Of a stretch of 64,000 bases of DNA, positions 12 to 41,743 are shown in pieces. Every line of letters starts with the position of its first letter. Position 1 is the first letter of the stretch. The DNA lies in the NCBI RefSeq assembly GCF_014075995.1, contig NZ_CP055153.1, forward strand, positions 744,001 through 808,000, read 5' to 3'. The position numbers and the translations under genes are program-made. The stretch comes from Adhaeribacter radiodurans (GTDB taxonomy: Bacteria > Bacteroidota > Bacteroidia > Cytophagales > Hymenobacteraceae). The notes below the pieces were generated by a model, which saw nothing but the letters and a program-made list of their open reading frames with translations, searched no databases and was not told the DNA's origin.

Positions 12-46
12 AACCTGCCCCTTGTAACCTGTAATCCTCAACTAAT
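12..46. repeat. Heptamer-like tract downstream of moaE
   Basis: Units of seven read AACCTGC, CCCTTGT, AACCTGT, AATCCTC, AACTAAT. It begins near the window edge, and only the AACCTGC/AACCTGT pair is convincing. Confidence 0.4.
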
Positions 47-456
47 TAAGGATGGGCGGCTACCCAGACTTCGCCATCTTCAAAAATTTCCTTCTTCCAG
101 ATAGGCACAATTTCTTTTAAAGTATCTATGATAAACTCGCATGCCTCAAAAGATGCTTTGCGGTGCGGCGTAGAAACGGCAATCACTACGGCTGCTTCGC
201 CAATAGGCAATAAGCCGGTACGATGCACAATAGCTACTTTTTGCACCGGCCAGCGTTCAGAAGCCAAATCTGCCAGTTCCTGCATTTTCTTTAAGGCCAT
301 GGATTCGTAAGCCTCAAATTCTAACCGCACTACTGTTTTTTTCTGGGTATTATTCCGGACGGTGCCAATGAATACATTGATTGCTCCGGCACCATCCGAT
401 TGTACGGTCGCAATTATTTCTTCTGTATTAATGGGTTGATCGGTTAAAGCAATCAT
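46..456 (-). CDS. moaE: Molybdopterin synthase catalytic subunit MoaE
   Basis: This 136-residue protein is the large subunit of molybdopterin synthase, which inserts two sulfurs into cyclic pyranopterin monophosphate. The family's catalytic features are visible: Arg34 in GTVR, the PHR motif at 97-99, and the lysine-rich PIWKKEIF segment at 118-125 that holds the active lysine. The length is normal for the family. It lies downstream of moaD on the same strand, separated by about 150 bases that carry a heptamer-type repeat. The start is the ATG at 456. Neither moaC nor moaB is in the window. Confidence 0.95.
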   Translation of the reverse strand: MIALTDQPINTEEIIATVQSDGAGAINVFIGTVRNNTQKKTVVRLEFEAYESMALKKMQELADLASERWPVQKVAIVHRTGLLPIGEAAVVIAVSTPHRKASFEACEFIIDTLKEIVPIWKKEIFEDGEVWVAAHP

Positions 457-460
457 GATA

Positions 461-606
461 GTACCAGGTATTAAGTATTAAGTAGCAGGATATTGAACGT
501 TAAAGGATAAGTAATAACTTCAAGTCCTAATTAGTCAAAGCAAATAGCAGTAGTAAGAATAAACAGGTAAACTAAATCTTAATACCTGAAACTTATTACC
601 TGCTAC
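461..606. repeat. Inverted heptamer tracts between moaE and moaD
   Basis: The first tract (461-495) reads GTACCAG, GTATTAA, GTATTAA, GTAGCAG, GATATTG. The second, read on the minus strand from 606 to 579, reads GTAGCAG, GTAATAA, GTTTCAG, GTATTAA. They are in opposite orientation, about 85 bases apart, and could pair imperfectly. They sit between the two minus-strand genes of a likely operon. Confidence 0.65.
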
Positions 607-608
607 TA

Positions 609-860
609 TCATCCGCCACTTACCGGTGGAATTAAAGCAATTTCGTCGTTGGGTTTTAAAGTTATTTCAGGTTTTGCGTATTCGTCGTTTACGGCTACTA
701 GAACTGAGTGTAGTTTTGTTAAACCCGGATAAGTAGTTTGTAAGTTATGAAGCAAATCCTGAACCTTAGAAGCTTCTGGAATGTCCAGTGATAACCAAGT
801 CTGACCAATAATGTCTTTTGTAATACCAAATAAGCGAATTTTTAATTGCATAGGTTTCAA
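609..860 (-). CDS. moaD: Molybdopterin synthase sulfur carrier subunit MoaD
   Basis: This 83-residue ubiquitin-like protein is the sulfur carrier of molybdopterin synthase. It ends in PPVSGG. The C-terminal double glycine is adenylated and thiocarboxylated before sulfur is passed to the pterin precursor in the MoaE active site. The ATG start at 860 follows a 98-base gap shared with the divergent moaA. It is the first gene of a moaD-moaE pair. Confidence 0.93.
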   Translation of the reverse strand: MKPMQLKIRLFGITKDIIGQTWLSLDIPEASKVQDLLHNLQTTYPGLTKLHSVLVAVNDEYAKPEITLKPNDEIALIPPVSGG

Positions 861-958
861 TAATAAATCCTTGTTAAAGTTAACTAATTTATAATAGAAT
901 TAGTTATCTATTTACAATCTCGAAATTTTCTCGTACTTTCGGTAGTAAGCACCAGATT

Positions 959-1966
959 ATGACTAAATCACGCCCGCAAATAGTAGATAATCACGGCCGT
1001 CCTTTAACGTACGTGCGATTGGCTGTTACCGATAGGTGCAATTTGCGTTGTTTTTATTGCATGCCCGCCGAAGGCATTGATTACCTTCCCAAAAAGCAAT
1101 TGCTTACCTACGAAGAAATGGAACGATTGCTGCAGGTGCTGGCTGGGTTAGGTATTAGTAAAGTACGTATTACAGGTGGCGAACCATTTCTGCGTAAAGA
1201 TTTAACTTACTTTCTGCGTCAGGTAAAAGCCATTCCGGGTATTGAAGAAATACATATTACGACTAACGGTGTACTTACCGAACAATATATTCCGGATTTA
1301 GTAAATTTAGGAATTAAGTCGGTTAATCTGAGCCTGGATACTTTAGACCGGGAGCGGTTCCATAAAATTACCCGTCGGGATGAATTTGAAAAAGTAATGC
1401 AAACGTATTATGCTTTGCTGGCTAATCAGATTTCAGTAAAAATCAACGCGGTAGTAATGGAAGGACAAAATATTGAAGATATTGTTCCTTTAGCTGCTTT
1501 AACCAAAGATCATCCGGTTTCGGTCAGGTTTATCGAAGAAATGCCCTTCAACGGTGAAGGCCAGCACTATCCGGTACTAACCTGGAATTACCGCAAGATA
1601 ATTACTGAATTACAAACTGCTTTTCCGGATTTATACAAAGTTTCAGATGATGTGCACTCTACGGCCAACCATTACGCTATTCCAGGATATAAAGGCAATA
1701 TTGGAGTGATTGCCGCCTTCTCCCGAACTTTTTGTGGCACCTGTAATCGTATTCGGGTAACTGCCCAAGGCGGATTAAAAACTTGTCTTTACGGGAATGA
1801 TGTGCTGAACGTAAAAAATATTCTACGGAGCGGGGCTTCTGATGCCGCCCTCACCGAAGAGCTACTGAAAGCCTTTGATAGTCGGGCTAAAGATGGGTAC
1901 GAAGCTGAAGCCCAACGACCTAAATTATTATCAGTTTTTGAATCTATGTCGATGATAGGAGGTTAA
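959..1966 (+). CDS. moaA: GTP 3',8-cyclase MoaA (radical SAM)
   Basis: MoaA is a radical SAM enzyme that converts GTP to 3',8-cyclo-GTP, the first step of molybdenum cofactor synthesis. The 335-residue protein has the SAM-cluster motif CNLRCFYC (Cys27, Cys31, Cys34) and the second cluster motif CGTC followed by a third cysteine 14 residues on (TFCGTCNRIRVTAQGGLKTC). The C-terminal double glycine, needed for activity in MoaA, is present as MIGG. It is transcribed away from moaD-moaE and ends at a strong hairpin. Confidence 0.96.
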   Translation: MTKSRPQIVDNHGRPLTYVRLAVTDRCNLRCFYCMPAEGIDYLPKKQLLTYEEMERLLQVLAGLGISKVRITGGEPFLRKDLTYFLRQVKAIPGIEEIHITTNGVLTEQYIPDLVNLGIKSVNLSLDTLDRERFHKITRRDEFEKVMQTYYALLANQISVKINAVVMEGQNIEDIVPLAALTKDHPVSVRFIEEMPFNGEGQHYPVLTWNYRKIITELQTAFPDLYKVSDDVHSTANHYAIPGYKGNIGVIAAFSRTFCGTCNRIRVTAQGGLKTCLYGNDVLNVKNILRSGASDAALTEELLKAFDSRAKDGYEAEAQRPKLLSVFESMSMIGG

Positions 1967-1981
1967 AGACCTCTACTAACT

Positions 1982-2035
1982 TTAATATAAAAGAAAAGCG
2001 GCTCTGTTACCAGAGCCGCTTTTCTTTTATATTAA
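1982..2035. terminator. Bidirectional terminator between moaA and nuoN
   Basis: A perfect 25-base stem (1982-2006 with 2011-2035) has the four-base loop TTAC. The GC core GCGGCTCTG is flanked by A-rich and T-rich arms, so both strands give a stem followed by a T run. It lies between the convergent ends of moaA (plus) and nuoN (minus) and can serve both. Confidence 0.93.
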
Positions 2036-2041
2036 GCTTTT

Positions 2042-3421
2042 TTACAATATATCGCTGAACAGTCCTGGAAAGATGCCTAATATTATGGTAAGCACCGCAA
2101 TAAAAATTAAGGTAAAAGTTGTAAAGGAATCTACCTCTAAACGTTCGCCACTAGGCTCGCGCATGTACATGGCAATTACTACCCGGAAGTAATAATAAAT
2201 ACCAACCATCGACATTAAAATTCCTATTACCACTAACCACAATAAATCTTTTTCCAGCACACTACCAAAAATGAAGAACTTACCAAAAAAACCACCTGTT
2301 AACGGAATTCCTGCCAGCGAAAGCATTGAAACTGTCATAACAAAAGCTAAGAGCGGATTAGTTCGGCCTAAACCATTAAAGCCAGCATAACTTTCGTCAC
2401 CATCGCGTTGGTCTGATACAATTTTTAAAATACCGAAAGCGGCTACGGTAGCTACGGAGTAAGCTAAGGAGTAAAAGAAAATTGCGTTCTCGGAACGACC
2501 GTTCAGGGCTAGCAGAGCTAACATTAAGTATCCAGCGTGAGAAATACTGGAATAAGCCATCATCCGCTTAAAGGAATCCTGAGCGGCAGCGCCAATATTA
2601 CCTATTACTAAGGTAATTACGGTCATGGCTACTAAAGTGGGGAACCAAAAAGAATAAGCTCCGGAAAAAGAAACGGAAAGTAATTTATAAAAAGCAGCAA
2701 ACCCCGCCGTTTTCACTACCGTCGACATAAAACCGGTAAACATAGCTGGAGTGCCTTCATACACATCGGGTGTCCAGAAGTGGAAAGGAGCCGCCGAAAC
2801 TTTAAACGAAATACCAACTAAAACCAACAACAATCCCATTCCTAACAACGGCGACATTCCTTCGGTATTGGAGTTAGCAGCAGAACTTATTTCGGTAATG
2901 TAGAAAGTACTGGTTGCACCGTAAATTAAAGCTATACCAAATAATAAAATTCCGGTAGCAAACGAACCCATTAAAAAATATTTCAGGGCGGCTTCGTTAG
3001 AACGCAAGCTTCGCTTTTCACTTCCAGCCAGAACATACATGCTGATAGATAATATTTCTATTCCGATAAATAGCATCAGGATATTTTCGTAGGCAACCAT
3101 CATAATAGCGCCAACAAGGGAGAATAAAAGCAAGGCAAAGTACTCCGGTAAATTGTCATCATTTATCCGGATATAACGAGCAGAAAAAGGTAAAATAAGG
3201 AGAGTGGTTAATACTACTATACTGGTGAAAGCTACCGCAAAATTATCAACGGTGAGCATATTGTTGAAATAACTTTCGGTTTGGTTCCAATCGGCCAGAT
3301 TTGCTCCAAATACGATTACTAGGAACAATAAAACCAGCGGCAGCAGAATCCGGTTAGATTTCAGGAAGCCTAAAAATAGGTTTATAATACCGAAAGTAGT
3401 GAGTAAAATAATTGATACCAT
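2042..3421 (-). CDS. nuoN: NADH-quinone oxidoreductase subunit N
   Basis: NuoN is one of the three antiporter-like proton-pumping membrane subunits of complex I. The protein is strongly hydrophobic with about 13-14 predicted membrane segments and carries the family pattern MAYSSISHAGY in the middle. The open frame extends to an ATG at 3448, but that codon lies inside a 33-base inverted repeat. I prefer the ATG at 3421 (MVSIILL), which gives 459 residues and a hydrophobic N-terminus. It is the last gene of the nuo cluster and ends at the terminator shared with moaA. Confidence 0.93.
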   Translation of the reverse strand: MVSIILLTTFGIINLFLGFLKSNRILLPLVLLFLVIVFGANLADWNQTESYFNNMLTVDNFAVAFTSIVVLTTLLILPFSARYIRINDDNLPEYFALLLFSLVGAIMMVAYENILMLFIGIEILSISMYVLAGSEKRSLRSNEAALKYFLMGSFATGILLFGIALIYGATSTFYITEISSAANSNTEGMSPLLGMGLLLVLVGISFKVSAAPFHFWTPDVYEGTPAMFTGFMSTVVKTAGFAAFYKLLSVSFSGAYSFWFPTLVAMTVITLVIGNIGAAAQDSFKRMMAYSSISHAGYLMLALLALNGRSENAIFFYSLAYSVATVAAFGILKIVSDQRDGDESYAGFNGLGRTNPLLAFVMTVSMLSLAGIPLTGGFFGKFFIFGSVLEKDLLWLVVIGILMSMVGIYYYFRVVIAMYMREPSGERLEVDSFTTFTLIFIAVLTIILGIFPGLFSDIL

Positions 3422-3438
3422 ATTACAGTTGTTCTTAA

Positions 3439-3524
3439 CATTTACCATTTACCAACTACCATTTACCAATTTTTATTTTTTATTTTTTAATAATTGGTAA
3501 ATGGTAGTTGGTAAATGGTAAATG
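3439..3524. repeat. Perfect 33-base inverted repeat made of TTTACCA heptamers
   Basis: Arm one (3439-3471) and arm two (3492-3524) are exact reverse complements with a 20-base T-rich spacer. Each arm is a tandem of seven-base units: TTTACCA, TTTACCA, ACTACCA, TTTACCA. It lies between nuoM and nuoN, just before the preferred nuoN start. The mRNA would form a long stable stem there. It lacks the GC core of a normal terminator. Confidence 0.9.
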
Positions 3525-3529
3525 AATAA

Positions 3530-4978
3530 CTATCTATTTATAATATTTAATAACTGATTTATTGATGGTTCTGAAATACTTAAGAATGTGTTGGGATGTA
3601 AACCAATCCAGAATACCATTACCACCAGCGGAATTAAAACCGCTTTTTCTATTTTGGTTAAATCTTTGAAATTAGCTGTTGCCGGGTTTTGTTCACCAAA
3701 CATAACACGCTGGAACATCCGCAGCATATAAACGGCTCCCAGTATTATAGTTAAGCCAGCCACTGCACCTAACCAGCCATTGTACTTATAAACACCCATT
3801 AACAATAAAAACTCGCCCACAAACCCGTTAGTGAGAGGTAAGGCTACGGCACCCAGTAGCAAAATCATGAAGTAGATGGATAAAGCTGGCGTACTTTGCG
3901 TAATACCACCTAAACTCTCTATATCGCGGGTATGGGTACGGCGGTAAATAATATCAACAATGAAGAATAAACCCGTTACGTTAATCCCGTGGCTTAACAT
4001 CTGAATCATTCCGCCTTGTAGGCCTTGCTCATTTAAAGTAAAAATACCAGCGGCAATTAAGCCTACGTGCGCAATAGAAGAGTAAGCTAACAAGCGTTTC
4101 AAATCGCGCTGGCGAATAGCAATAATAGAACCGTAGATTATACCAATAACCGAAAGTATCAAAACCAACTCATCCCATTGACTTACGCCTAATGGAACTA
4201 CTGGCAGTAACCAGCGGATAACTCCATAGATACCCATTTTCAGCATAATACCGGAAAGTAACATAGTGGCTGGTGCCGGAGATTCGGTGTAAGTATCGGG
4301 TTGCCAGGTATGAAAAGGGAATACTGGCATTTTAATGGCAAAAGCCAGAAACAAGAACCAGAATATCCAGCTTTGGCTGCTAGCATCTAAGGTTAACTGG
4401 TAAAAAGCGTTAATATCTGAAGAGTGATTGCCTGGCGTTTGGAAATACAGGTAGATAAACCCTACCAGCATAAACAACGAGCCAATAATGGTATACAAGA
4501 AAAACTTAAACGTAATGGCAATTCTTCGTTCACCACCCCAAACGGCCGCAATAAAGTAAATCGGAATTAAAGCTACCTCCCAGAAAAAGTAAAATAAGAA
4601 AGCATCAAAAGAAACAAACACGCCAATCAAACCAGTTTGCATGAGTAGAATAAGCGCGTAAAAAGCCGATGGATTCTTATACGAATGCGGAAAGGAAGCT
4701 AAGATAATTAACGGTACCAGAAAGGTCGTCAGGAAAACCATAAGCAAACTAATGCCATCCATGCCGATGCTAAACGTAATACCCGCAGAAGAAATCCAGT
4801 CTTTTACTAAAGTAAATTGGGGAGCCACGGAAGGTTCAAACTGCAGCATGGCGTATATAGCCAACAAAAACTCCAGAATGGCAGCCCCGAAAGCAAATTT
4901 TTTGGCGGTGTTACCTTTTAAAAGCAGAACCAATAAGGCCGCCGCCGCGGGCCAGAAAAGTAATAAAGCTGTTATCAT
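3530..4978 (-). CDS. nuoM: NADH-quinone oxidoreductase subunit M
   Basis: NuoM (482 residues) is an antiporter-like proton-translocating subunit in the membrane arm of complex I. It has about 14 hydrophobic segments. The family signatures are FFFWEVALIPIYF, with the conserved glutamate of the pumping channel in an early helix, and LLAYSSIAHVGL in a central helix. The ATG start at 4978 is 10 bases downstream of the nuoL stop, so the two are translated from one message. The gap to nuoN holds the large inverted repeat. Confidence 0.95.
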   Translation of the reverse strand: MITALLLFWPAAAALLVLLLKGNTAKKFAFGAAILEFLLAIYAMLQFEPSVAPQFTLVKDWISSAGITFSIGMDGISLLMVFLTTFLVPLIILASFPHSYKNPSAFYALILLMQTGLIGVFVSFDAFLFYFFWEVALIPIYFIAAVWGGERRIAITFKFFLYTIIGSLFMLVGFIYLYFQTPGNHSSDINAFYQLTLDASSQSWIFWFLFLAFAIKMPVFPFHTWQPDTYTESPAPATMLLSGIMLKMGIYGVIRWLLPVVPLGVSQWDELVLILSVIGIIYGSIIAIRQRDLKRLLAYSSIAHVGLIAAGIFTLNEQGLQGGMIQMLSHGINVTGLFFIVDIIYRRTHTRDIESLGGITQSTPALSIYFMILLLGAVALPLTNGFVGEFLLLMGVYKYNGWLGAVAGLTIILGAVYMLRMFQRVMFGEQNPATANFKDLTKIEKAVLIPLVVMVFWIGLHPNTFLSISEPSINQLLNIINR

Positions 4979-4988
4979 CTTTTTCTTG

Positions 4989-6941
4989 CTACCAGAATCT
5001 AAAGTTTAATAGTATAATAAGGGCAATGCTCAGAACCATGGCAAAAATATAGAAGCCAATATCTCCAGTTTGTAGTAAGCGCAAGGAACGGCCGCCACCG
5101 AGAACAGTTTTTCCAAAGCCATTTACTACTGGGTCAATAATACTTTGCTCAACAAACCGGTACACATTGGTCGAGAGCCACATTATTGGTCGTACAATTA
5201 GAGCATTATAAATCTCGTCGATGTAATATTTGTGGTAAATCAAATTGTGCAAAGGAGAGAGGCGGGTATCTTCATCAGCAGGTACGGTACGTTTTTTAAC
5301 GTAAGTAACATAAGCGACAATAATGGCTAATACTGCTACACCTACCGAAATGGCCATGAGAATGTATTCTGTTGAGTGGGATAACTCTGCCGCTTCGAAC
5401 ATGCTTGGATTCGCTATTCGGGCATTATTAAATACCGGAGAGAGAAAATCTGCCAGATAATGATGGGCACCAAATACTGCCGGAATACCCATAAAGCCAC
5501 CAATCGTAGATAATATTGCCAGAATAATAAGCGGTAAGGTCATGCTGGCTGGTGACTCATGCAAATGGTGGCGTTGTTCTTCGGTGCCCCGGAAAGAACC
5601 AAAAAAGGTTAAATACAACAACCGGAACATGTAAAAAGCGGTCATGAATGAAGCAAATACCCCAAAGGCCCACATGATTTTACTGTGCTCCCACACGTGC
5701 GCCAACAATTCATCTTTCGAGAAGAAACCGGCAAACGGTGGAATTCCTGAAATAGCTAATGTTCCAATTAAGAAGGTTAAAAATGTTATTGGTAATTTCT
5801 TGCGCAAACCACCCATCATCCGAATATCCTGTTCGCCGCTCATAGCGTGAATAACACTACCCGCACCCAGGAACAATAATGCTTTAAAAAAGGCATGAGT
5901 AAGTACGTGGAACATGGAAGAAGTATAAGCGGTAACGCCTAAAGCTAAAAACATATATCCTAACTGACTAACAGTAGAGTAAGCGAGTACTTTTTTAATA
6001 TCGTTCTGAGCTAAACCAATGGTTGCCGCAAATACTGCGGTTATTAACCCAATAATTGCAATTACGTGCAGCGTATCTGGGGCAAGGCTATACAACACGT
6101 TGGAGCGCAATACCATGTAAATACCTGCCGTAACCATGGTAGCCGCGTGAATAAGCGCAGAAACTGGGGTAGGTCCAGCCATCGCATCGGGTAACCAGGT
6201 ATAAAGGGGTAATTGCGCGCTTTTACCCATTGCGCCAACAAATAATAATAAGGTAATAGTAACTATAACGGGTGCATTTAGTAAGTTGGGCATTTGCGTG
6301 GCTTTACTAAATACCTCCGCGTAGGAAACACTTTCGAAAGTGTTAAATATTAAGAAAATACCTAACAAAAAGCCCAAATCACCAATACGGTTCATGATAA
6401 AAGCTTTCTTAGCGGCATTGTTGTAGTTCTGGTTTTTATTCCAGAAGCCAATTAACAAGTAAGAGCATAAACCAACCCCTTCCCAACCAAAAAACATTAA
6501 AACGTAGTTAGAGCCCATTACCAGCAGCAGCATCGAAAAAATAAACAAATTCAGGAAAGCGAAGAACTTTCCGAAATTCTCATCGTGGTGCATGTAGCCA
6601 ACGGAATATACGTGAATGACAAATCCAACGCCCGTAACCAGCAGCAGCATAATCAGCGATAACTGGTCGATTTGGAAGGAGATTGGAATTTGCAGATTCC
6701 CGACTGACACCCAATTAAAGATATCAGTTAAATAAGGCTGACCATTAAAACTAAAGAATAGATAAAGGGATAAGAGAAAAGAGGTAAAAACGGTTGCCGA
6801 ACCAATAAACCCGGCTAAACCAACGGGTAATTTACGGTTGCCTAAGCCGTTAATAAGAAATCCGATAAATGGCAGCAAAGGTATTAATAAGCAAATTAGC
6901 GCCATCTCCGGATTATTTGCAGGCATTGCGACTTCTTGCAT
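4989..6941 (-). CDS. nuoL: NADH-quinone oxidoreductase subunit L
   Basis: NuoL (650 residues) is the distal proton-pumping subunit of complex I. Its C-terminal extension, the long amphipathic lateral helix along the membrane arm, is visible as a charged region from about residue 550 followed by a final membrane helix. Signatures include FFGWEGVGLCSYLLIGFW near residue 150 and KVLAYSTVSQLGYM near 320. The start at 6941 (MQEVAM) is used here. ATGs at 6926 and 6905 are possible alternatives and only trim a polar tail. Confidence 0.95.
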   Translation of the reverse strand: MQEVAMPANNPEMALICLLIPLLPFIGFLINGLGNRKLPVGLAGFIGSATVFTSFLLSLYLFFSFNGQPYLTDIFNWVSVGNLQIPISFQIDQLSLIMLLLVTGVGFVIHVYSVGYMHHDENFGKFFAFLNLFIFSMLLLVMGSNYVLMFFGWEGVGLCSYLLIGFWNKNQNYNNAAKKAFIMNRIGDLGFLLGIFLIFNTFESVSYAEVFSKATQMPNLLNAPVIVTITLLLFVGAMGKSAQLPLYTWLPDAMAGPTPVSALIHAATMVTAGIYMVLRSNVLYSLAPDTLHVIAIIGLITAVFAATIGLAQNDIKKVLAYSTVSQLGYMFLALGVTAYTSSMFHVLTHAFFKALLFLGAGSVIHAMSGEQDIRMMGGLRKKLPITFLTFLIGTLAISGIPPFAGFFSKDELLAHVWEHSKIMWAFGVFASFMTAFYMFRLLYLTFFGSFRGTEEQRHHLHESPASMTLPLIILAILSTIGGFMGIPAVFGAHHYLADFLSPVFNNARIANPSMFEAAELSHSTEYILMAISVGVAVLAIIVAYVTYVKKRTVPADEDTRLSPLHNLIYHKYYIDEIYNALIVRPIMWLSTNVYRFVEQSIIDPVVNGFGKTVLGGGRSLRLLQTGDIGFYIFAMVLSIALIILLNFRFW

Positions 6942-7023
6942 CTACAATCTAGGTTTGTGGGAATCTTTCTATGGTAAAAAACTTAAAAATTTTAGTTAGT
7001 TGGTTAAACTGAAATTTAAGGAA

Positions 7024-7359
7024 CTACCATTTTAAATTATTTAAGATATTAATATCTGTAGACCGGATGTTCCGGTAAATCATAACAATAATTGCCAAAC
7101 CAACGCAAACTTCGGCGGCAGCCACAGCCATTATAAAAAATACAAAAACTTGAGCATTGGCATCGGAACGATAAGCCGAAAAGGCAGTAAGCAATAAGTT
7201 TACTGCGTTTAACATAAGCTCAATGCACATAAAGATAACAATGGCATTACGCCGGGTTAAAACCCCGGTTACACCAATAACAAAAAGTGCAGTACTAAAA
7301 AACAGATAATAATTTAAGGGTATTGTCCGGATTACCTCAGGTATTTGATCCATGGGCAA
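7024..7359 (-). CDS. nuoK: NADH-quinone oxidoreductase subunit K
   Basis: NuoK (111 residues) is a small three-helix membrane subunit of complex I. The conserved membrane glutamate is seen in [12 protein letters not shown], and a second acidic residue in [13 protein letters not shown]. The length matches the family. It is separated from nuoJ by 303 bases that include a terminator-like stem and a possible promoter element. NuoK to NuoN may therefore be partly an independent transcription unit. Confidence 0.95.
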
Positions 7360-7404
7360 ATGATAGAAGCGTTAGCTATAAGGTTTACTTTCTCCACGAA
7401 GCCG

Positions 7405-7640: not shown

Positions 7641-7662
7641 ATTGAATCAATCTATAATCAAT

Positions 7663-8186: not shown

Positions 8187-8278
8187 TAGTTTGTAGTTGA
8201 TTGTCTAGGGTTAATAGACTATCAACTATAAAAATTTAGAAAACTGTGGACTTTGGACTATCGTCTATGGTCTACTAA
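8187..8278. repeat. Heptamer-periodic tract with hairpin, nuoJ-nuoI gap
   Basis: The first half forms a 14-base stem with one mismatch (8194-8207 with 8215-8228) and a seven-base loop. It reads as units TAGTTTG, TAGTTGA, TTGTCTA, GGGTTAA, TAGACTA, TCAACTA. The second half (8244-8278) is a clear seven-base series: CTGTGGA, CTTTGGA, CTATCGT, CTATGGT, CTACTAA. It runs into the nuoI stop codon. Confidence 0.65.
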
Positions 8279-10955: not shown

Positions 10956-11269
10956 TTATATCTAGTTGTCAGTTGTTGGTTATTAAGGGTATGTCAATAT
11001 CTACCATTCACCAACTTGTTATTTTTTAATCAAACTCCCTGATTTAGATTAAGAGTAGGTAAAACTTAAACTTGATTAAACCTTTGCTTATTCTATAAAA
11101 GAGAAAATTTAAAAATTAGTAGTATCTACTATTAAATTTTAGAAAGAAATTTACTTTTTCTGTCAAACCTTACCGGAAATTTCCTGGTAAAAGCTTATGG
11201 TTGCCAACCTTATATTTTACTAGTATGTAGTTACTATAATGTTGGTAGTTTGTTATTTTATAATTCAGC
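10956..11269. other. 314-base gap between nuoG and nuoF
   Basis: No coding frame is visible here. The part nearest nuoG (10963-11018) is a seven-base periodic tract. The rest is AT-rich with no promoter match that I would trust. A missing NuoG domain is not encoded here. Confidence 0.7.
10963..11018. repeat. Heptamer-periodic tract, nuoG-nuoF gap
   Basis: Units of seven read TAGTTGT, CAGTTGT, TGGTTAT, TAAGGGT, ATGTCAA, TATCTAC, CATTCAC, CAACTTG. The second half resembles the reverse complement of the first (AGTTGTTGG against CCAACTTG). The stretch CTACCATTCACCAACT also resembles the nuoM-nuoN repeat. Confidence 0.5.
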
Positions 11270-12630: not shown

Positions 12631-12753
12631 AAGTATCAGGACACAAGTACCAAGACTATCAAATTCACTTTTTTATTATTCAGACTTCTGTTTCAGGTTT
12701 AAAAATTTTGTTATAAATCTTACTGCCTGATCCATCCTGCCTGATACTATTTA
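12631..12753. repeat. Paired inverted heptamer tracts, nuoF-nuoE gap
   Basis: The first tract (12631-12658) reads AAGTATC, AGGACAC, AAGTACC, AAGACTA. The second (12719-12753) reads CTTACTG, CCTGATC, CATCCTG, CCTGATA, CTATTTA and ends at the nuoE stop. They are in inverted orientation, with AGTATCAGG and CCTGATACT exactly complementary. The first tract closely resembles the reverse complement of a tract at 36151-36192. Confidence 0.6.
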
Positions 12754-26295: not shown

Positions 26296-26330
26296 TAGTC
26301 TATAGTCCACGGTCCATAGACCACAGATGG
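26296..26330. repeat. Heptamer-periodic tract upstream of the EamA gene
   Basis: Five clean units of seven bases are seen: TAGTCTA, TAGTCCA, CGGTCCA, TAGACCA, CAGATGG. The tract begins five bases outside the transporter start codon. Its words match those at 28838-28872 and 8244-8278. Confidence 0.7.
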
Positions 26331-27512: not shown

Positions 27513-27519
27513 ATGTTAG

Positions 27520-27554
27520 TTGCAAGTTACGGGTTGCAAGTTGCAAGTTTTTAG
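27520..27554. repeat. Heptamer-periodic tract (TTGCAAG) upstream of lptF/G
   Basis: Units of seven read TTGCAAG, TTACGGG, TTGCAAG, TTGCAAG, TTTTTAG. The tract starts eight bases upstream of the permease start codon. Beyond it, at 27577-27570, is a minus-strand TAACTTTG -7-like element. If that is used, the repeat would lie in the 5' untranslated leader. Confidence 0.75.
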
Positions 27555-27698
27555 AAAGTTAGAAAATTGCAAAGTTAGAGATATAACGAACTACGTTCCA
27601 CGATTAATATGAAACCTGCCAAGCCTAAAAACAATTCCACCATTCAGCAATCAAACAACGTTCACCTTTGGCCTATTTAATGTATACCGTAGACCACT

Positions 27699-28837: not shown

Positions 28838-28872
28838 TAGATGGTCCACAGTCCATAGACGATAGACCAATG
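28838..28872. repeat. Heptamer-periodic tract upstream of tgt
   Basis: Five units of seven read TAGATGG, TCCACAG, TCCATAG, ACGATAG, ACCAATG. The tract is nine bases upstream of the tgt start. It shares words with the tracts at 26296-26330 and 8244-8278. Confidence 0.7.
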
Positions 28873-33159: not shown

Positions 33160-33201
33160 CTATAACTGTGGGCTATGATCTATAGTCAAATAACTAAATA
33201 G
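33160..33201. repeat. Heptamer-periodic tract upstream of holB
   Basis: Six units of seven read CTATAAC, TGTGGGC, TATGATC, TATAGTC, AAATAAC, TAAATAG. The tract ends one base before the holB ATG. The words overlap those of the tracts at 8244 and 26296. Confidence 0.55.
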
Positions 33202-34330: not shown

Positions 34331-34342
34331 ACGATTTATAGA

Positions 34343-35284: not shown

Positions 35285-35304
35285 ATATTAAAACTAGTAT
35301 TTTC

Positions 35305-35967
35305 ATGACTCTCTTACATTTTAACTTTTTTAAAAGATTTTTCAGTAATAAGAGTGTATTAGTGCTTTTGCTGTTAGGCTTAAGCTTTACTCAAAGTTTA
35401 GCAAAAGGTAAATCTAAAAAAGATGAGATTGTTACTATTACCACGCAGTTCGGTGATATGGTAATAATTCTTTACGAGGAAACACCCCAACACAAGGCAA
35501 ATTTTTTAAAGCTGGCGAAAGAAGGGTTTTACAATAACACTACTTTTCATCGGATAATTGATGATTTTATGATTCAAGGCGGTGATAAAAACTCAAAAGA
35601 TGAAGATAAAACCAATGATGGTGCCGGCGATGTGGGCTATCAGATTCCGGCTGAGTTCAATGCAAAGTTTAAGCACGTACGCGGAGCTGTAGCTGCTGCC
35701 CGGCAAGGAGACTTTGTAAACCCGAAGCGGGAGTCAAGCGGGTCGCAATTTTATATTGTAGAAAACCACGTGGGCACGCCGCATCTGGATAATCAGTACA
35801 CTGTTTTTGGCCAGGTAATTAGTGGCTTAGACGTAATTGATAAAATTGCGGAACAACCTAAAGGACCTCGCGATCTTCCTTTATCGGATATCCGGATAAC
35901 AATGAAAGTAGAAAAACTTAAAAAGAAGAAAATTACGAAACGGTACGGCTATTCGTATTCCGCTTGA
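35305..35967 (+). CDS. Exported cyclophilin-type peptidyl-prolyl isomerase
   Basis: This 220-residue protein has a signal peptide (about 1-33, ending near SLAKG) and one cyclophilin domain. Core motifs are FHRIIDDFMIQGGD (with the catalytic arginine), SGSQFYIV and TVFGQVISGLDVIDKI. It would catalyse cis-trans proline isomerisation in the periplasm. It starts 20 bases after hemC and is likely the last gene of the holB-hemC run. Confidence 0.92.
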   Translation: MTLLHFNFFKRFFSNKSVLVLLLLGLSFTQSLAKGKSKKDEIVTITTQFGDMVIILYEETPQHKANFLKLAKEGFYNNTTFHRIIDDFMIQGGDKNSKDEDKTNDGAGDVGYQIPAEFNAKFKHVRGAVAAARQGDFVNPKRESSGSQFYIVENHVGTPHLDNQYTVFGQVISGLDVIDKIAEQPKGPRDLPLSDIRITMKVEKLKKKKITKRYGYSYSA

Positions 35968-36150
35968 ATAATTTAGTAAATTTTCTTTTTGGTTTTAATA
36001 AATACCTAACTCTCTAAGACTAATACAGTGCTTGGGGAGTTTTTTTATTTCTATTAAGTAATTGGGAGTAATTAATTTACTATACTAGAGGTCGAGATTG
36101 TTGTAGTATTTTATTGGTGGCCATATATTTAGCAACACAAAAGTCTAGTG

Positions 36151-36192
36151 TTTAATATCTTGATACTTGTGTCTCTTTACCTATACTTAGCT
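36151..36192. repeat. Heptamer-periodic tract downstream of the Rieske gene
   Basis: Units of seven read TTTAATA, TCTTGAT, ACTTGTG, TCTCTTT, ACCTATA, CTTAGCT. Its reverse complement (AGACACAAGTATCAAGA region) matches the tract at 12631-12658 at most positions. It lies just past the stop of the minus-strand Rieske gene. Confidence 0.5.
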
Positions 36193-36199
36193 CATTCAA

Positions 36200-36544
36200 T
36201 TATAAAGTTAAGTAAATTCCATCTGGCTGTATTTCTACTAAAAAGGTTTTCAAATAAGAAGTACGGTTATCACACTCCTGACCATTAAATAAAGAAAAGC
36301 GGTAACTATGCCAGGGGCATACTACTTCGTTTAAATAATTGGTGGTTCCTTTACTTAATGATTCCCCAAGGTGCGGACAAACATCGGATACAGCGAAAAT
36401 ACCTTTACGCGTCCGCACCAGGCAAATAGCTTCTTTTTGACCTGATACCCATAATTTTTGAGGTTTACCTAATGGTAATGCTTGTTCGGCGGCAGTTACA
36501 GAATCAAATATTTTGTGTTGTTGAGTAGGAGGAAGATCGGCCAT
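36200..36544 (-). CDS. Rieske [2Fe-2S] ferredoxin-like protein
   Basis: This 114-residue soluble protein carries a Rieske cluster. The ligands are CPHLGESLSKG (Cys-x-His) and, about 16 residues later, CPWHSYRFSLFNG (Cys-x2-His). There is no membrane anchor and no catalytic partner domain, so it is likely an electron-transfer ferredoxin of the NirD/assimilatory type. I chose the ATG at 36544 over a TTG at 36556. Its redox partner is unknown. Confidence 0.88.
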   Translation of the reverse strand: MADLPPTQQHKIFDSVTAAEQALPLGKPQKLWVSGQKEAICLVRTRKGIFAVSDVCPHLGESLSKGTTNYLNEVVCPWHSYRFSLFNGQECDNRTSYLKTFLVEIQPDGIYLTL

Positions 36545-36949
36545 ACAGTAAATCAAATTAACAAAAAGGATTGCTTTATATTATTAGTTTTTAGGATTGT
36601 TGAGTTATACAATCGTTTAATTTAACAACCGAACAAAGCAATCTTAATAGTATAAATCACATACGGAGCAATTAAGCGTGGTATATAAGATTTACCGGAA
36701 AGAGTTTCTATAAAAAGAATAAAGCAATTCTCAGCAAGAAAAAAAATAAGCTATAGAAAATAATTATTGTAATTGATCCCTATTCCAAAATTCAATTATG
36801 CAGGTTCTAAATTATCTTTCAACCTATTAAATAGAAATCTGTTTGCCACTATTTGGCATAGAACATCAATGTTCAACATTTACCTATTTACTACAAATGC
36901 AAAAGAGTAAAAGTTAGCAAGTATTTTAAAAATTAATGCAAGAAGAATA
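36545..36949. other. 405-base gap, no gene seen
   Basis: The region between the Rieske gene and the methyltransferase has no credible open frame. It has an imperfect inverted pair, AGGATTGCTTT (36567-36577) and AAAGCAATCTT (36635-36645), with one mismatch. A shorter pair GATTGT/ACAATC lies inside it. This could be a folded RNA leader or chance in AT-rich DNA. Confidence 0.6.
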
Positions 36950-37708
36950 TTATTTGTTTGGGACTTTTCTAAAAACAAGAATGTGTTGGAGAGGTAAAAT
37001 ATCCTGGTTCTCTACAAAATTTAGCCCAACACCTGTAGCTTCTTTTCTAGCTTGTTTCTCCGACATCCGGTGTAAAGCTTTAATAGGTACGTAAGGATCT
37101 TCGGCTTTATATTCTACTAAAACAAGGCGGCCATTGGGCTTTAAGGCTTTTTTTATTGCGAGCAACATTTCATGCGGATACGAAAATTCGTGGTACGAAT
37201 CTACCAATAGGGCTACATCTACACTTTGATTTGGTAAATTAGGGTTTTGCAAGGAGCCTAAAATAGGTTCTACGTTAAAAGCATTTTTTAAAATGCGATT
37301 ATCGAGCAGCATATTTAAAAATTCCTGCTGTACATCAACTGCCAGTACTTTGCCCTGCGGGACTAACGGACTAATGCGAAAAGTCATATACCCGCTTCCA
37401 GCCCCAATATCGGCTACTACATCCGTGGGGCGCAGTTTTAAAGCTTGTAATAGTAAATCGGTGCGTTCTTCTTTTTCACGTTCAGAGCGTTCGAGCCAAC
37501 TAGCTTCAGAATGGCCCATGGTATAGGCAATCTGTCGGCCCCGGTAGTACTTACCAATTCCGTTAGGGTCGATGGGCGATTTATACACGTACAGCGAATC
37601 AGATGGTATACTAGATGTAGTAGCCTGACTATCGTAGTTACAACCTATTAGCCTGCTAATAATCGCAAAAACTAAAATAAACCCGCTAAATTTTAAAAAT
37701 ATTGGCAT
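36950..37708 (-). CDS. SAM methyltransferase-like protein with lipoprotein signal
   Basis: This 252-residue protein has a class I methyltransferase core: VVADIGAGSGYMTFRIS (SAM-binding loop), VLAVDVQQEFLNMLL and VALLVDSYHEFSYP. Before it is a hydrophobic N-terminus with a clear lipobox LIGCNYDSQ at about residue 19-27 (ATG start at 37708), then a serine/threonine-rich linker. That predicts export and lipidation, an odd place for a SAM enzyme. I chose the ATG at 37708 rather than a TTG at 37711. The substrate is unknown. Confidence 0.82.
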   Translation of the reverse strand: MPIFLKFSGFILVFAIISRLIGCNYDSQATTSSIPSDSLYVYKSPIDPNGIGKYYRGRQIAYTMGHSEASWLERSEREKEERTDLLLQALKLRPTDVVADIGAGSGYMTFRISPLVPQGKVLAVDVQQEFLNMLLDNRILKNAFNVEPILGSLQNPNLPNQSVDVALLVDSYHEFSYPHEMLLAIKKALKPNGRLVLVEYKAEDPYVPIKALHRMSEKQARKEATGVGLNFVENQDILPLQHILVFRKVPNK

Positions 37709-37856
37709 CAACTTCTCCTGCGCAAACGTTGCTTTTATTTATAACGCAGTAAAGTACAGCAAAAATATAAAAGTGGTGGTTATAGATTCTGAAAATCAGA
37801 CGTTTTACCAGGATTGGAGCAGAAAGAATAACAGGTTAAGTAGCGAACGCCAGTTT

Positions 37857-38921
37857 TTAGTTGTAACCCAAACCTATACCCGCCGAAACTGTGGGATATT
37901 TAGCTAATGTTCCTTCGGCATTAATACTAAAAATTGATAATTTTAATCGGAACCCACCGGTTAGTCCGAGCTGATTGTATTCAGTTGGAATATCTACCGG
38001 GTCAATTATATTTTGAATTTCTCGGGTGTAGGGCGGCTGCTCCCGTAAAACGGTTACTGGGTAGTTACCTGACATGGCGGTTGTAGTATTGCTTTTGCTG
38101 TAACTTACCCCGGCGTACCCGGTTATAACCGATATGGTTTTAGAGGCTACTAGTTGTGCAGTAATGGCTTTGGTATTAAAAATAACCTTCTGATTGGTGT
38201 AATCTAGAGGGTTTGGGTTAGCAATCCCATTTTGGGGCCTTAACTGTAAACCATAATTCGACCGAAAAGAAGAAAAAGCAGCAACTGCCGTAATATCAAA
38301 TGGCAAAGTAGTTAAACCAGGAAGCCATTTTGCAATATTATTTTTCAGGCCGATTCCCCATAAGTTAAGATTTAAATCACCTGCTTTACTTTTTGGAAGA
38401 AGCCGAAACATTAATTCAGTTTCTTTCACTACCCCAATGGTTAATTGTACCATTGGAATGGGAGCTATGTTGGTACCAATTCCTTCGGGAGTGTTAAAAG
38501 AGGCTACTTGTTCTTCTTGTTTTGTATCGGGGCGGGTGGCGTAAACGTTCAATAATGGACCGGGAGAATCTTCTCCGAAAACAGTAGGAGCAATGGTGCC
38601 GCTACCAGGAGCAATCCGCACGTTGGAGTTTAAGCCAATAGAACTAACATCAAAGGTGCGGTCTTTTTGGGGTACAAAAGTGGCATTGGCAAATACCCGA
38701 ATTTCGAAACGGCCCGGTTTAAAAGCTTTACCGGTGGTTATCCAACCCGTATTTAAATCTGCACCGAACGCCTTACTTAAAGGAGTGCCGTAAGCTTTTG
38801 CTAAAAGTTCAGCATTTACTATTCCACTTTTTATTAATTCGGCCGTTTCGGATTGGGCTGAAGCAGAATTTTTTATGAACAACAAACCAATAGTTAAAAT
38901 AAGAAGAAGAATTTTTCTCAT
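37857..38921 (-). CDS. Exported DUF6588-like protein
   Basis: This 354-residue protein has a signal peptide (MRKILLLILTIGLLFIKNSA). The mature part is rich in beta-type alternation, ending in IGLGYN, as in outer-membrane beta-barrel proteins. It resembles proteins annotated DUF6588 in Cytophagales; that match is from memory. No catalytic motif is visible. I chose the ATG at 38921 so the signal peptide starts cleanly, instead of the upstream codon at 38945. Confidence 0.65.
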   Translation of the reverse strand: MRKILLLILTIGLLFIKNSASAQSETAELIKSGIVNAELLAKAYGTPLSKAFGADLNTGWITTGKAFKPGRFEIRVFANATFVPQKDRTFDVSSIGLNSNVRIAPGSGTIAPTVFGEDSPGPLLNVYATRPDTKQEEQVASFNTPEGIGTNIAPIPMVQLTIGVVKETELMFRLLPKSKAGDLNLNLWGIGLKNNIAKWLPGLTTLPFDITAVAAFSSFRSNYGLQLRPQNGIANPNPLDYTNQKVIFNTKAITAQLVASKTISVITGYAGVSYSKSNTTTAMSGNYPVTVLREQPPYTREIQNIIDPVDIPTEYNQLGLTGGFRLKLSIFSINAEGTLAKYPTVSAGIGLGYN

Positions 38922-39082
38922 TTTTAGTAGATAAGTAAAGTGCAAAAATAAATTACTTCTAAATCAGGTAAAAAAGGCGCTCTAAATGAGCGTAATATTT
39001 GTTTTTTGCTTACGTAATTTCTAACTTAAGTTGCAAAATTTAAATTTTTAAAGTTGCCTGCTTCAAAATAGTAATTTAACCT

Positions 39083-41611
39083 TTACACTGGATCTACATC
39101 TACTACCACCCGAATATTGCGAAAATCTTTATTTAATTTCAACTGGTTAATAGCTTCTGCTATAAGCAGTTTGGCCGTTTTTAGGCTGGTATGTTCCCGG
39201 TCGAGTTTAATGTGAATTTCGCTCAGATAATAATTGCGGATTTTAAAAATATAAGGCACTTCCGGACCGAGTACCTGATTTTTAGGCAAACGATCGGTAA
39301 ACTCTTTGGCAAGAACCGCTGCCGCTTGTTCGTTAATTTTCTCGTCGATGTGTTTAACCGTAATTTTAATAACGCGCATAAATGGCGGGAAATTAAATTT
39401 ACGGCGTTCCTGAATTTCAAATTCGTATAAGGCCTGGTAATCGTTTGCGATTACTTTCTGAAAAATTCCCTGCGAGGGATTACCCGTTTGAATAATTACT
39501 AAGCCTTTTTTGCCTTTACGGCCGGCCCGGCCACTTACCTGCACAAACATCTGGTATGCCCGCTCATGTGCGCGATAATCAGGATAATTTATAATACTAT
39601 CGGCGTTGATAATGCCCACCAAACTTACATTTTCGAAGTCTAACCCCTTGGTTACCATTTGCGTGCCCACTAAAACATTCGTGTTATTGGCTTCAAAATC
39701 AGCAATTATTTGCTGGTAGCTATTTTTACTGCGCGTAGTATCTAAATCCATCCGCTGAATGTTCGCTTCCGGTAATAGTAACTTTAATTCATCTTCAATT
39801 TTTTCGGTACCAAAGCCAACGGTTTTAATCATGGTGGAACCACAGGCCGGGCAATCATGGGGCATAGACTCGTGGTAACCGCAATAATGGCAGCGCAATT
39901 CACGGTTATATTTATGGTAGGAGAGGCTTACGGCGCAATTTTTACACTTCGGAATCCAATCGCAATCGTGGCAATTAATGTAAGGAGCGTAACCCCGGCG
40001 GTTTTGAAATAAAATTACTTGTTCTTGTTTCTGTAATTTTTGTTCGATTTGTGCCAGTAATTTTTGCGAAAAATGACTGTGCATTGTTTTCTTCTGGCTT
40101 TCGCGGCGGGTATCCACCAGTTCAATTTCAGGTAAACCGGCTTCTCCGAATCTTTTATTCATGGTTACTAAACCCCAGCGGCCGGTTTTGGCATTGTAAT
40201 ACGTTTCAACGGCGGGGGTAGCCGAGCCTAACAAAGTTTTGCATTTATGGTAAGTTGCCAGCATAAGCGCTACTTCGCGCGCGTTATAACGAGGAGCCGG
40301 TTCGTATTGCTTGTAAGACGATTCGTGTTCTTCGTCCACAATAATCAATGACAAGTTATGGAAAGGTAAAAAAATTGCCGAGCGCACCCCAATTACCACC
40401 GAAAAACGCCCCGATAAAACACCGTTCCAGACTTCTACCCGTTCATTATCGGAGAATTTAGAATGATAAACTCCTAAACGACTGCCGAATACTTTAATAA
40501 GCCGCGTAACAATCTGAGCTGTAAGAGCAATTTCGGGTAATAAATACAATACCTGACCACCACCTTCCAGTGCTTTTTTTATTAAATCGATGTATACTTC
40601 GGTTTTACCGCTACCGGTAATGCCGTGTAACAACACAATATCTTTGCTGTCGAATAAATCTAATATTTCATCCCGAGCCGTTATTTGATGCCCGGATAAG
40701 TTAAAAGCTGGCTGGGGTTTATTCTCATCCACCGGGAACCGGGAAACAATGGTTTCAAATTGCTCCAGAATACCTTTTTTTATTAAAGCATTAATTGAGG
40801 ATAGTGAAAGGTGCGGATTAGAAGTTAAAATATTTTTCTCAATGCCTTTTTCGTTTAAGTGTACATTCTGGTGAACGGGTACTTTTTGCAGATAATGGAG
40901 TACCACATCGAGTTGTTTGGGGCGAACCGCTAATTGACTCATGAGTTCTTCCAGCATTTCGGCTTCATGGATAAAATACGGCGACAAGCGGAGTTTTTTT
41001 ACCACTTTAGGCGTGTACTTATCGGCTATTTCCTCGAAAATAATTATAATCTCTTTTTGAATAAGCGATTTTATTATTTTATGAAAATGGCTGATTTGTA
41101 ATAAATTACCAACTTCCGTGAAAGTGAGTGTTTGATTCTGGCCTAAAGCAAAAACGATCTTTTCTTCGGGCGCCGATAAGGGATAGTTAGAATATTCCAA
41201 ATTATACTGCGGATGCAACTGTATCCGCGATTCGCTGCTTAATTTTAGCGCCGACGGTAAAGCCGCGTTAATTACTTCCCCAATGGTGCACATGTAGTAC
41301 TCCGCTATCCAATTAAAAATTTTAAGCTGGGGCGTTGTTACTACGGGAGTTTCATCGATAATTTCCAGAATGTATTTTGCCTGGTATCCTACCGGTGGCT
41401 TTTCGTGCACATCGGCTACAATGCAACTTAATATTTTCTTTGCCCCAAACTGAACAATAACCCGGGTGCCTACAAAAATATCGTCGTTCATGTCGTAAGG
41501 AACCCGATACGTGTAAAGCTTGGGCAAAGGTAAAGGCAAGATAACGTCGGCAAATAAAGTTATCCGCTCCGTAGCTTGTTCCGACGACTGAAATAATAAT
41601 GGCTGGCTCAA
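39083..41611 (-). CDS. priA: Primosomal protein N' (PriA helicase)
   Basis: PriA restarts collapsed replication forks. The 842-residue protein has the Walker A motif LLHGITGSGKTEVY, the DEEH box in IIVDEEHESSYK, and LLGSATPAVETYY. The zinc-binding region is CHDCDWIPKCKNC, then CHYCGY and CPACGS, with all eight cysteines. The C-terminal helicase motifs include LVGTQMVTKGLDFENV and QVSGRAGRKGKKG. The longest frame begins with a TTG at 41611, right after an in-frame stop; no earlier ATG exists and the conserved domain starts soon after, so TTG is plausible. Confidence 0.94.
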   Translation of the reverse strand: MSQPLLFQSSEQATERITLFADVILPLPLPKLYTYRVPYDMNDDIFVGTRVIVQFGAKKILSCIVADVHEKPPVGYQAKYILEIIDETPVVTTPQLKIFNWIAEYYMCTIGEVINAALPSALKLSSESRIQLHPQYNLEYSNYPLSAPEEKIVFALGQNQTLTFTEVGNLLQISHFHKIIKSLIQKEIIIIFEEIADKYTPKVVKKLRLSPYFIHEAEMLEELMSQLAVRPKQLDVVLHYLQKVPVHQNVHLNEKGIEKNILTSNPHLSLSSINALIKKGILEQFETIVSRFPVDENKPQPAFNLSGHQITARDEILDLFDSKDIVLLHGITGSGKTEVYIDLIKKALEGGGQVLYLLPEIALTAQIVTRLIKVFGSRLGVYHSKFSDNERVEVWNGVLSGRFSVVIGVRSAIFLPFHNLSLIIVDEEHESSYKQYEPAPRYNAREVALMLATYHKCKTLLGSATPAVETYYNAKTGRWGLVTMNKRFGEAGLPEIELVDTRRESQKKTMHSHFSQKLLAQIEQKLQKQEQVILFQNRRGYAPYINCHDCDWIPKCKNCAVSLSYHKYNRELRCHYCGYHESMPHDCPACGSTMIKTVGFGTEKIEDELKLLLPEANIQRMDLDTTRSKNSYQQIIADFEANNTNVLVGTQMVTKGLDFENVSLVGIINADSIINYPDYRAHERAYQMFVQVSGRAGRKGKKGLVIIQTGNPSQGIFQKVIANDYQALYEFEIQERRKFNFPPFMRVIKITVKHIDEKINEQAAAVLAKEFTDRLPKNQVLGPEVPYIFKIRNYYLSEIHIKLDREHTSLKTAKLLIAEAINQLKLNKDFRNIRVVVDVDPV

Positions 41612-41709
41612 CAGTACTCCAATTTTTTACCGCTGAAGAGTTTTCAGCTCTAACAAAGGTCGCAAGAACCGCAATCTTTCCCAAATAGTTGTGAGTAGTT
41701 GCCGTTAGT

Positions 41710-41743
41710 AACAGGTAACAGGTTACAGGTTATAACCTGTAAC
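41710..41743. repeat. Heptamer tract with 22-base perfect palindrome
   Basis: Units of seven read AACAGGT, AACAGGT, TACAGGT, and the series turns into its own complement, so 41722-41743 is a perfect 22-base palindrome. It lies between priA and the DUF255 gene, five bases beyond the DUF255 stop codon. Confidence 0.75.

What the first reader, a model, noticed from the sequence alone, without database searches (positions are those of the whole stretch)
12..41743. A family of seven-base-periodic intergenic tracts
At about a dozen gaps (12-46, 461-606, 3439-3524, 8187-8278, 10963-11018, 12631-12753, 26296-26330, 27520-27554, 28838-28872, 33160-33201, 36151-36192, 41710-41743) the sequence falls into tandem units of exactly seven bases. 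The unit differs from site to site (TTTACCA, TTGCAAG, AACAGGT, TAGTCCA, GTATTAA), but the period does not. Many tracts begin within a few bases of a start or stop codon, and several come as inverted arms that can fold. None was seen in coding DNA or in the 17 kb act-cox block. Heptanucleotide tandem repeats (STRRs) are known from filamentous cyanobacteria; I know of no equivalent description for this lineage. A changing unit with a fixed period suggests repeated copying or slippage at each site, not spread of one mobile sequence.
Basis: partly seen in the sequence, partly recalled or inferred. Interest (0 to 1): 0.75.

Follow-up and report, generated by a model that had tools for sequence, protein, structure and literature searches.

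The report
Seven-base repeats flanking bacterial genes
Some gaps between genes in this bacterium and its relatives carry short DNA arrays repeating every seven or eight bases that mostly point away from the neighbouring gene and sometimes form hairpins whose two sides evolve together; the pattern is real and wider than the window, but its cause and use are not settled.

Summary
The period is real. In 1.2 Mb of the genome (an Adhaeribacter relative), gap tracts number 40 at lag 7 against 2.7 in shuffles, 33 against 1.0 at lag 14, 17 against 0.7 at lag 21; lag 8 is also raised (10 against 2.3). New here: (1) Polarity. Edge tracts read outward from the gene (GTT/AGT/AAG/TAG) at starts and stops: 49 outward, 5 inward, 8 ties in two congeners; 53/14/1 in 76 named loci. 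(2) Some tracts are arms of gap-spanning hairpins. In one Spirosoma gap 20 of 30 loci have long stems, arms 97% matched within a locus but 70% alike between species; eight species pairs show 28 both-sided and 9 one-sided changes. This suggests copying between arms, but the G·U/A·C test meant to prove it lacks a positive control. In the window's own genus few tracts pair well. (3) One unit family gives 40-109 matches in four congeners, none in four others. Intergenic heptamer repeats are known, also in Bacteroidetes (PMC4679880). Verdict: new variant of a known kind; function inferred only.

The parts
461..606 (.). Gap 457-608 upstream of moaE: two inverted arms (468-484 and 572-602), unit RGTATTA/RGTATCA
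   Evidence: (p=0.003); in the G005 alignment both arms can be followed by eye with changed units, though no tract scored there; MoaE by Pfam
3435..3529 (.). Gap between two Proton_antipo_M genes: near-perfect hairpin of CATTTAC heptads flush with stop and start codon
   Evidence: lag-7 segment score 33 and fold -49.1 kcal/mol; Pfam; other units in the same slot of G006 and G008, none seen in G003 (by eye except G008)
8187..8278 (.). Gap between the Oxidored_q3 and Fer4 genes: TAGTCCA heptads (8243-8274) plus an inner hairpin
   Evidence: conserved in G005 at 83%
10963..11018 (.). Weak AGTTGTC-type tract at a start edge
   Evidence: p=0.025
12631..12753 (.). Gap between the Complex1_51K and 2Fe-2S_thioredx genes: RGTATCA-type inverted arms
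   Evidence: p=0.003, lag 14; G005 84%
26296..26330 (.). TAGTCCA-type tract at a start edge
   Evidence: 0 of 400 shuffles
27519..27579 (.). AGTTGCA heptads (27519-27549), then inward a 16-periodic stretch (27555-27579), upstream of the LptF/LptG gene
   Evidence: 7-outer/8-inner order also seen by eye in G006 gaps
28838..28872 (.). TAGTCCA-type tract around the called start of the TGT gene
   Evidence: 0 of 400 shuffles
41708..41732 (.). GTAACAG heptads at the stop edge of the Thioredox_DsbH (DUF255) gene; here they read inward, against the polarity rule
   Evidence: one search list (stop edge, distance 15)
12..46 (.). Weak AACCTGTAA tract at the stop edge of moaE
   Evidence: p=0.033
33160..33201 (.).
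   Evidence: p=0.32
36151..36192 (.).
   Evidence: p=0.35

Best explanation
These are edge arrays of intergenic foldback DNA. Short units of seven or eight bases multiply by copying errors (slippage) in the gaps; the array at each edge of a gap points outward from the gene, so two arrays in one gap form the arms of a palindrome. Where both arms exist, one arm is repeatedly copied from the other at DNA level (template switching within the palindrome), which keeps stems nearly perfect while the sequence, and even the period, changes between species. Shown: period, polarity, concerted change of arms in one well-sampled gap, clade-wise multiplication of unit families. Inferred: slippage, template switching, DNA rather than RNA level of upkeep, and the effect in the cell. 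Most likely effect where both neighbours run the same way: a long intercistronic RNA hairpin about 5 nt after the stop and 11 nt before the next start, damping or separating translation of the next gene. How a unit family reaches many gaps, and why unpaired edge arrays keep the polarity, is not explained.
For: Period 7 and 8 in arms: among arms of at least 22 nt with a best lag of 0.55 or more in same-direction gaps, 30 have lag 7 and 18 lag 8; shuffled arms 2 and 1. Concerted arms in one Spirosoma gap: 20 mismatches in 647 stem columns of 20 hairpins; 8 non-overlapping species pairs (chosen with arm identity of 0.7 or more) give 28 both-changed and 9 one-changed of 254 columns; arm identity 0.97 within a locus, 0.70 between species. 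Slot kept, unit changed: that gap has 17 stems of lag 8 and 3 of lag 7 at 0.5 or more; mreB|mreC has stems of several different units; the complex I gap of the window. Mismatches in 60 periodic hairpins of same-direction gaps: G·U 43, A·C 48 on the sense strand, so no wobble excess. Published: template switching can create and maintain perfect stems (PMC8794818, passages read).
Against: Most tracts in the window's own genus do not pair strongly with the other edge: 13 of 60 tract-bearing gaps in G000 (4.4% of cross-gap pairs reach the same score) and 2 of 29 in G005 (4.9% of cross-gap pairs), so pairing does not explain polarity. Concerted evolution was measured in Spirosoma only and rests on one gap. 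Spread of one unit family over dozens of places is not predicted by local slippage.
Confidence: 0.4

Rival explanations
1. RNA-level selection: the hairpins are intercistronic or 3'-end regulatory structures whose pairing is kept by selection on the transcript.
For: Periodic stems lie in 41 of 1034 same-direction and 7 of 218 convergent gaps but 1 of 188 divergent gaps; flush with stop and start; slot retained while the unit changes.
Against: No G·U excess on the sense strand, with the caveat that the test lacks a positive control; convergent gaps are nearly as rich as same-direction gaps; many tracts have no partner arm.
Confidence: 0.28
2. Mobile foldback- or MITE-like element whose terminal inverted repeats are arrays of tandem subrepeats and which inserts in gaps.
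For: Fixed polarity of arms; unit families with 40-109 matches in four congeners and none in four; two G006 gaps share 44 bases of array at 97.7% (L246/L250), as if copied.
Against: In the gaps recovered from 20 selected G006 regions the listed similarities (40 best shown) looked to lie in the arrays and I saw no shared interior; in unselected gaps of at least 140 bp the RGTTRCA family sits on one edge in 68 and on both in 3; Y1 transposase matches do not follow the family (G000 4, G003 3, G005 1, G006 3; G001 4, G002 10, G004 1, G007 1). Target duplications were not tested.
Confidence: 0.15
3. Independent polymerase slippage at each site with no further structure (the first reader's view; the cause proposed for heptamer repeats by Mrazek, as cited in PMC4679880 and PMC4692102).
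For: Period 7 and 8 excess, near-absence from coding DNA.
Against: Outward polarity, matched arms, the same unit at dozens of places.
Confidence: 0.1
4. Sense-strand signal at translation starts (binding site of an RNA-binding regulator), as proposed for TAACTGA repeats in Beggiatoaceae.
For: 28 of 46 edge tracts in G000 are at starts.
Against: The opposite sense orientation occurs at stop edges, also in convergent gaps (AGT 14: ACT 2 in G000+G005 convergent edge tracts).
Confidence: 0.05

Closest known systems
TAACTGA heptamer direct repeats of Beggiatoaceae, cyanobacteria and five Bacteroidetes (PMC4679880)
   Same: Intergenic, period 7, before start codons; in Flexibacter litoralis 12 of 14 sets forward at starts and one set reverse after a stop, which fits the outward polarity found here (TAACTGA read outward is TCAGTTA)
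   Different: One fixed unit there; here many units sharing polarity, period 8 as well, and paired arms. TAACTGA x2 is absent from the window and found in 3 of 293 loci
G-rich heptamer repeats GGGAATC / GGGGA(T/C)T of Xanthomonas and Nostoc (PMC4692102)
   Same: Intergenic heptamers with fixed and variable positions, length variation between species, some inverted (passages read)
   Different: G-quadruplex-forming unit; here mostly AT-rich units
STRR heptanucleotides of filamentous cyanobacteria (recalled; Calothrix case mentioned in PMC4692102)
   Same: Period 7, tandem
   Different: Not compared in sequence here
REP/BIME palindromes with RAYT transposases (recalled)
   Same: Short intergenic palindromes
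   Different: Conserved sequence there, changing sequence and 7/8 period here; no link to Y1 transposase counts
Foldback transposons of Drosophila (recalled)
   Same: Inverted repeats built of tandem subrepeats, unconserved middle
   Different: Eukaryotic; no mobility shown here
Template-switch maintained hairpins (PMC8794818)
   Same: Perfect stems kept by copying between arms
   Different: That work treats RNA genes; here periodic intergenic DNA

Membership tests
Intergenic heptanucleotide tandem repeats (LSSR/STRR type) | Excess of period 7 in gaps over shuffles and over other lags | tested here: met
   lag 8 also raised
Intergenic heptanucleotide tandem repeats (LSSR/STRR type) | Identical unit in tandem | tested here: inconclusive
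   Units within a tract usually vary at some positions
TAACTGA repeats (MacGregor 2015) | Unit TAACTGA | tested here: not met
   0 in window, 3 of 293 loci
REP/BIME | One conserved palindrome in many copies | tested here: not met
   Unit differs between sites and species
REP/BIME | Associated Y1 (RAYT) transposase | tested here: inconclusive
   Y1 matches in 18 of 19 genomes, not following the unit family
REP/BIME | GTAG or CGTC tag at one end | not tested
   -
Foldback/MITE element | Shared interior beyond the subrepeats | tested here: inconclusive
   none seen, but only selected G006 gaps and the 40 best similarities were looked at
Foldback/MITE element | Target-site duplication, filled/empty pairs | not tested
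   G000/G005 gaps differ in arrays but boundaries were not resolved
Known RNA family (Rfam 15) | Match at gathering score | tested here: not met
   0 matches in the window
Intrinsic terminator | Stem followed by a U run | not tested
   Only looked at by eye in folds

The most novel reading that the evidence does not exclude
Gene boundaries in these bacteria are written over by a dedicated process that adds 7- or 8-base units with a fixed polarity relative to the coding sequence, whichever end of the gene it is, for example a templated array-adding enzyme or a palindrome-copying pathway peculiar to some Bacteroidia, so that each lineage carries its own set of unit 'dialects'.
Probability: 0.1. 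Interest if true: 0.9.

Novelty: new variant of a known kind. Interest (0 to 1): 0.6.

Why it matters
It gives a sharp, testable rule (outward polarity at both ends of genes) and a natural series of orthologous gaps in which stems stay matched while their sequence turns over. That makes two open questions directly testable: why seven is the favoured repeat length in bacteria, and how far perfect hairpins are upkept by replication errors rather than by selection on RNA. If the DNA-level reading holds, it also warns that covariation in such stems is not by itself proof of a functional RNA.

Tried and rejected
Promoter-in-the-loop insulation: looked at by eye in the printed gaps; 12 of 41 periodic stems in same-direction gaps have loops of 16 nt or less, too short for a promoter, so dropped as a general model. 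Shine-Dalgarno avoidance: a mild bias exists at ordinary start edges of G000 (AGG 276: CCT 147 outward) but not at ordinary stop edges (211: 206), so it does not explain stop-edge polarity. Pairing of arms as the cause of all polarity: weakened. RAYT link: no correlation. G·U against A·C as proof of DNA-level upkeep: weakened, since non-periodic hairpins give the same answer.

Limits on counts. The polarity counts include 20 G006 regions chosen mainly because they carried opposed or repeated matches, so I do not rest the claim on them; the unselected repeat with single heptamers gives 62 outward, 25 inward, 2 ties. The polarity motif set was chosen after seeing G000; G005 (14/1/1) and the 76 named loci (53/14/1) are the independent tests; named stop edges are weaker (21/9/0) than named start edges (32/5/1). 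The reversed-pattern control for CATTTAC is uninformative because the unit read backwards is nearly itself. Of the 80 named loci, 4 short ones (L019, L049, L080, L089) were left out of the surveys. In one search, 10 of 30 Spirosoma loci without a long stem were left out of the arm statistics; the 30 are the matches given loci out of 34 strong matches in 36 genomes. The complex I gap was read in 5 of 12 loci (G000, G003, G005, G006, G008); for the others the script printed a different gap or none.
Full report
Where it lies. The window is G000:C2:744001-808000 of a 6.94-Mb genome. The best named relative of a window protein is Adhaeribacter aerolatus, 75% identical (records very near the window may be left out there); that species is Cytophagales, Hymenobacteraceae. 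Pfam puts several of the listed gaps between genes of complex I subunit families.

Observation. Tandem Repeats Finder and a lag analysis find period 7 in non-coding DNA of the window. In 400 kb around the window, gap tracts at lag 7 number 13 against 0.2 in shuffles and at lag 14 7 against 0.2; in 400 kb of the congener G005 they are 11 against 0.2 and 11 against 0.6, with lags 8 and 16 at 7 and 6. Over 1.2 Mb of G000 they are 40 against 2.7, 33 against 1.0 and, for lag 21, 17 against 0.7; lag 8 is 10 against 2.3. Coding DNA shows 3 lag-7 tracts in 965 kb.

Placement. At a score of 10 or more, 62 lag-7/14 tracts lie in 51 of 747 gaps (gaps under 30 bp not searched): 51 tracts in 507 same-direction gaps, 6 in 124 convergent, 5 in 116 divergent. 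Median distance to the nearest gene edge is 10.5 bp against 39 for random placement in the same gaps; 28 lie near starts, 18 near stops, 16 more than 40 bp inside.

Polarity. Read outward from the gene edge, G000 edge tracts carry AGT 65: ACT 2, GTT 84: AAC 8, AAG 39: CTT 1. Per tract, outward/inward/tie is 35/4/7 in G000, 14/1/1 in G005 and 53/14/1 in 76 named loci of Cytophagales and Sphingobacteria-type genera. With periods 8 and 16 included, convergent stop edges give 9/4/1 and divergent start edges 11/1/5 over the three sets; interior tracts are mixed, though same-direction start-side interiors of G000 are still 8/2/3. Ordinary stop edges show no such bias, ordinary start edges a mild one. 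One window tract (41708-41732) goes the other way.

Hairpins. Own-gap arm pairing reaches a score of 24 in 13 of 60 tract-bearing gaps of G000, where 4.4% of cross-gap pairs do; in G005 in 2 of 29 against 4.9%; 2.5% of 80 gaps without tracts reach it. So in the window's genus only a minority pair well; gap 3449-3529 is the best case in the window. In other genera some stems are striking. Among 1034 same-direction, 218 convergent and 188 divergent gaps of 40-330 bp (G000, G005, named loci), 41, 7 and 1 carry a periodic stem, and 65, 63 and 2 another strong stem; for the periodic ones in same-direction gaps the median distance is 5 nt from stop to stem and 11 nt from stem to start. Best lags of arms are 7 (30) and 8 (18) against 2 and 1 after shuffling (this count also includes the Spirosoma and mreB loci). 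The 5' arm of periodic stems in same-direction gaps is poor in C (0.08) against G (0.24 for period 7, 0.34 for period 8); non-periodic ones are balanced.

Evolution. In the gap between porV and an M16 peptidase gene (Pfam) of Spirosoma, 20 of 30 loci have long stems: 17 of lag 8 and 3 of lag 7 (L175, L176, L201) at 0.5 or more; the other 10 carry a short AAATGGCATTTC hairpin. Stem columns mismatch in 20 of 647; eight non-overlapping species pairs show 28 both-sided and 9 one-sided changes in 254 columns; arm identity is 0.97 within a locus and 0.70 between species at the best offset. Mismatches on the sense strand are G·U 43 and A·C 48 in 60 periodic stems of same-direction gaps; non-periodic stems give 25 and 44 in same-direction gaps and 8 and 19 in convergent ones, so the test has no positive control. 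At mreB|mreC (Pfam), 8 of 30 loci of the Larkinella family sample reach a stem score of 35 (10 reach 32; 4 of those 10 are not periodic), against 3 of 60 other same-direction gaps of the same loci at 35; the periodic ones use different units. In the complex I gap of the window G000 and G005 have CATTTAC, G006 a TCGAATA-like unit, G008 an 8-base TTCGAATG-like unit, G003 no stem seen (5 of 12 loci read, by eye except the lag-8 score of G008's locus). Between G000 and G005, of 48 orthologous gaps of at least 30 bp, 7 have tracts in both, 7 only in G005, 1 only in G000, 33 in neither.

Families of units. AGTTGCAR x3, up to 2 mismatches, overlapping matches counted: 40, 66, 54, 109 in G000, G003, G005, G006; 0 in G001, G002, G004, G007 (G007 is 78% complete); 1 in all in the 11 other genomes; reversed control 0. 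The 54 of G005 fall in 35 places. CATTTAC x3: 43, 2, 21, 7 in the same four, 1 in G014, none in the others. In selected G006 gaps 7-base units lie outside and 8-base units inside, by eye, and two gaps share 44 bases of array at 97.7%. Lack of one family is not lack of tracts: A. aerolatus L013, whose contig has the length of G001:C1, has lag-7 tracts, while 40 kb of G001 overlapping and beyond it has none at that score. In 22 stretches from 19 genomes of other families of the class, lag 7 counts 6 and lag 14 7 against 0 in one shuffle, lag 7 in 4 of the 19 genomes: patchy, not universal. Among 76 named loci lag 7 counts 60, lag 14 58, lag 8 17, lag 16 13, lag 18 11, the others 0-7.

Literature. 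PMC4679880 (abstract, introduction, Bacteroidetes section, passages) and PMC4692102 (passages) show that heptamer repeats in gaps are known and that polymerase slippage was proposed; PMC8794818 (passages) shows template switching can keep stems perfect; PMC4060949 and PMC13155455 (passages) do not describe these tracts in the passages seen. The nine searches listed no account of the polarity rule or of concerted periodic arms; for most hits only the listing was seen, and most subscription journals are not held.

Reading. Slippage explains the period but not polarity, matched arms or shared units. Copying between arms explains concerted stems where they exist. Spread of unit families and polarity at unpaired edges remain unexplained; remnants of older palindromes are my guess.

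Noticed in passing
G000:C2:465481, 1758995, 4327262, 4455795: Four MreB-like matches in the window's genome (64-81% identical to the Larkinella query).
   Followed up: no
L026, L027, L032, L037, L045, L075 (Hymenobacter): Several gaps carry long hairpins of a recurrent GTCATGCTGAGC...GAAGCATCTC type between genes; a dispersed repeat unlike the periodic tracts.
   Followed up: no
L135, L167, L171 (G000): Recurrent non-periodic hairpin GGCGCGGAAGTTACTTCC in G000 gaps, REP-like; G000 also has 4 weak Y1 transposase matches.
   Followed up: no
L180, L181, L190, L191, L193-L195, L197, L198, L200: Spirosoma loci without the long stem share a short AAATGGCATTTC hairpin in the same gap, as if the two alternate.
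   Followed up: partly
L246 and L250 (G006): Two different gaps share 44 bases of mixed 7/8-base array at 97.7% identity, as if one was copied from the other.
   Followed up: no
   Followed up: partly
G000:C2 about 594.8-595.0 kb and G005:C1:6222834-6223008: A TAGTCCA-type tract and the TACCTTTG stretch next to the start codon are nearly identical in both species while the rest of the gap is not.
   Followed up: no
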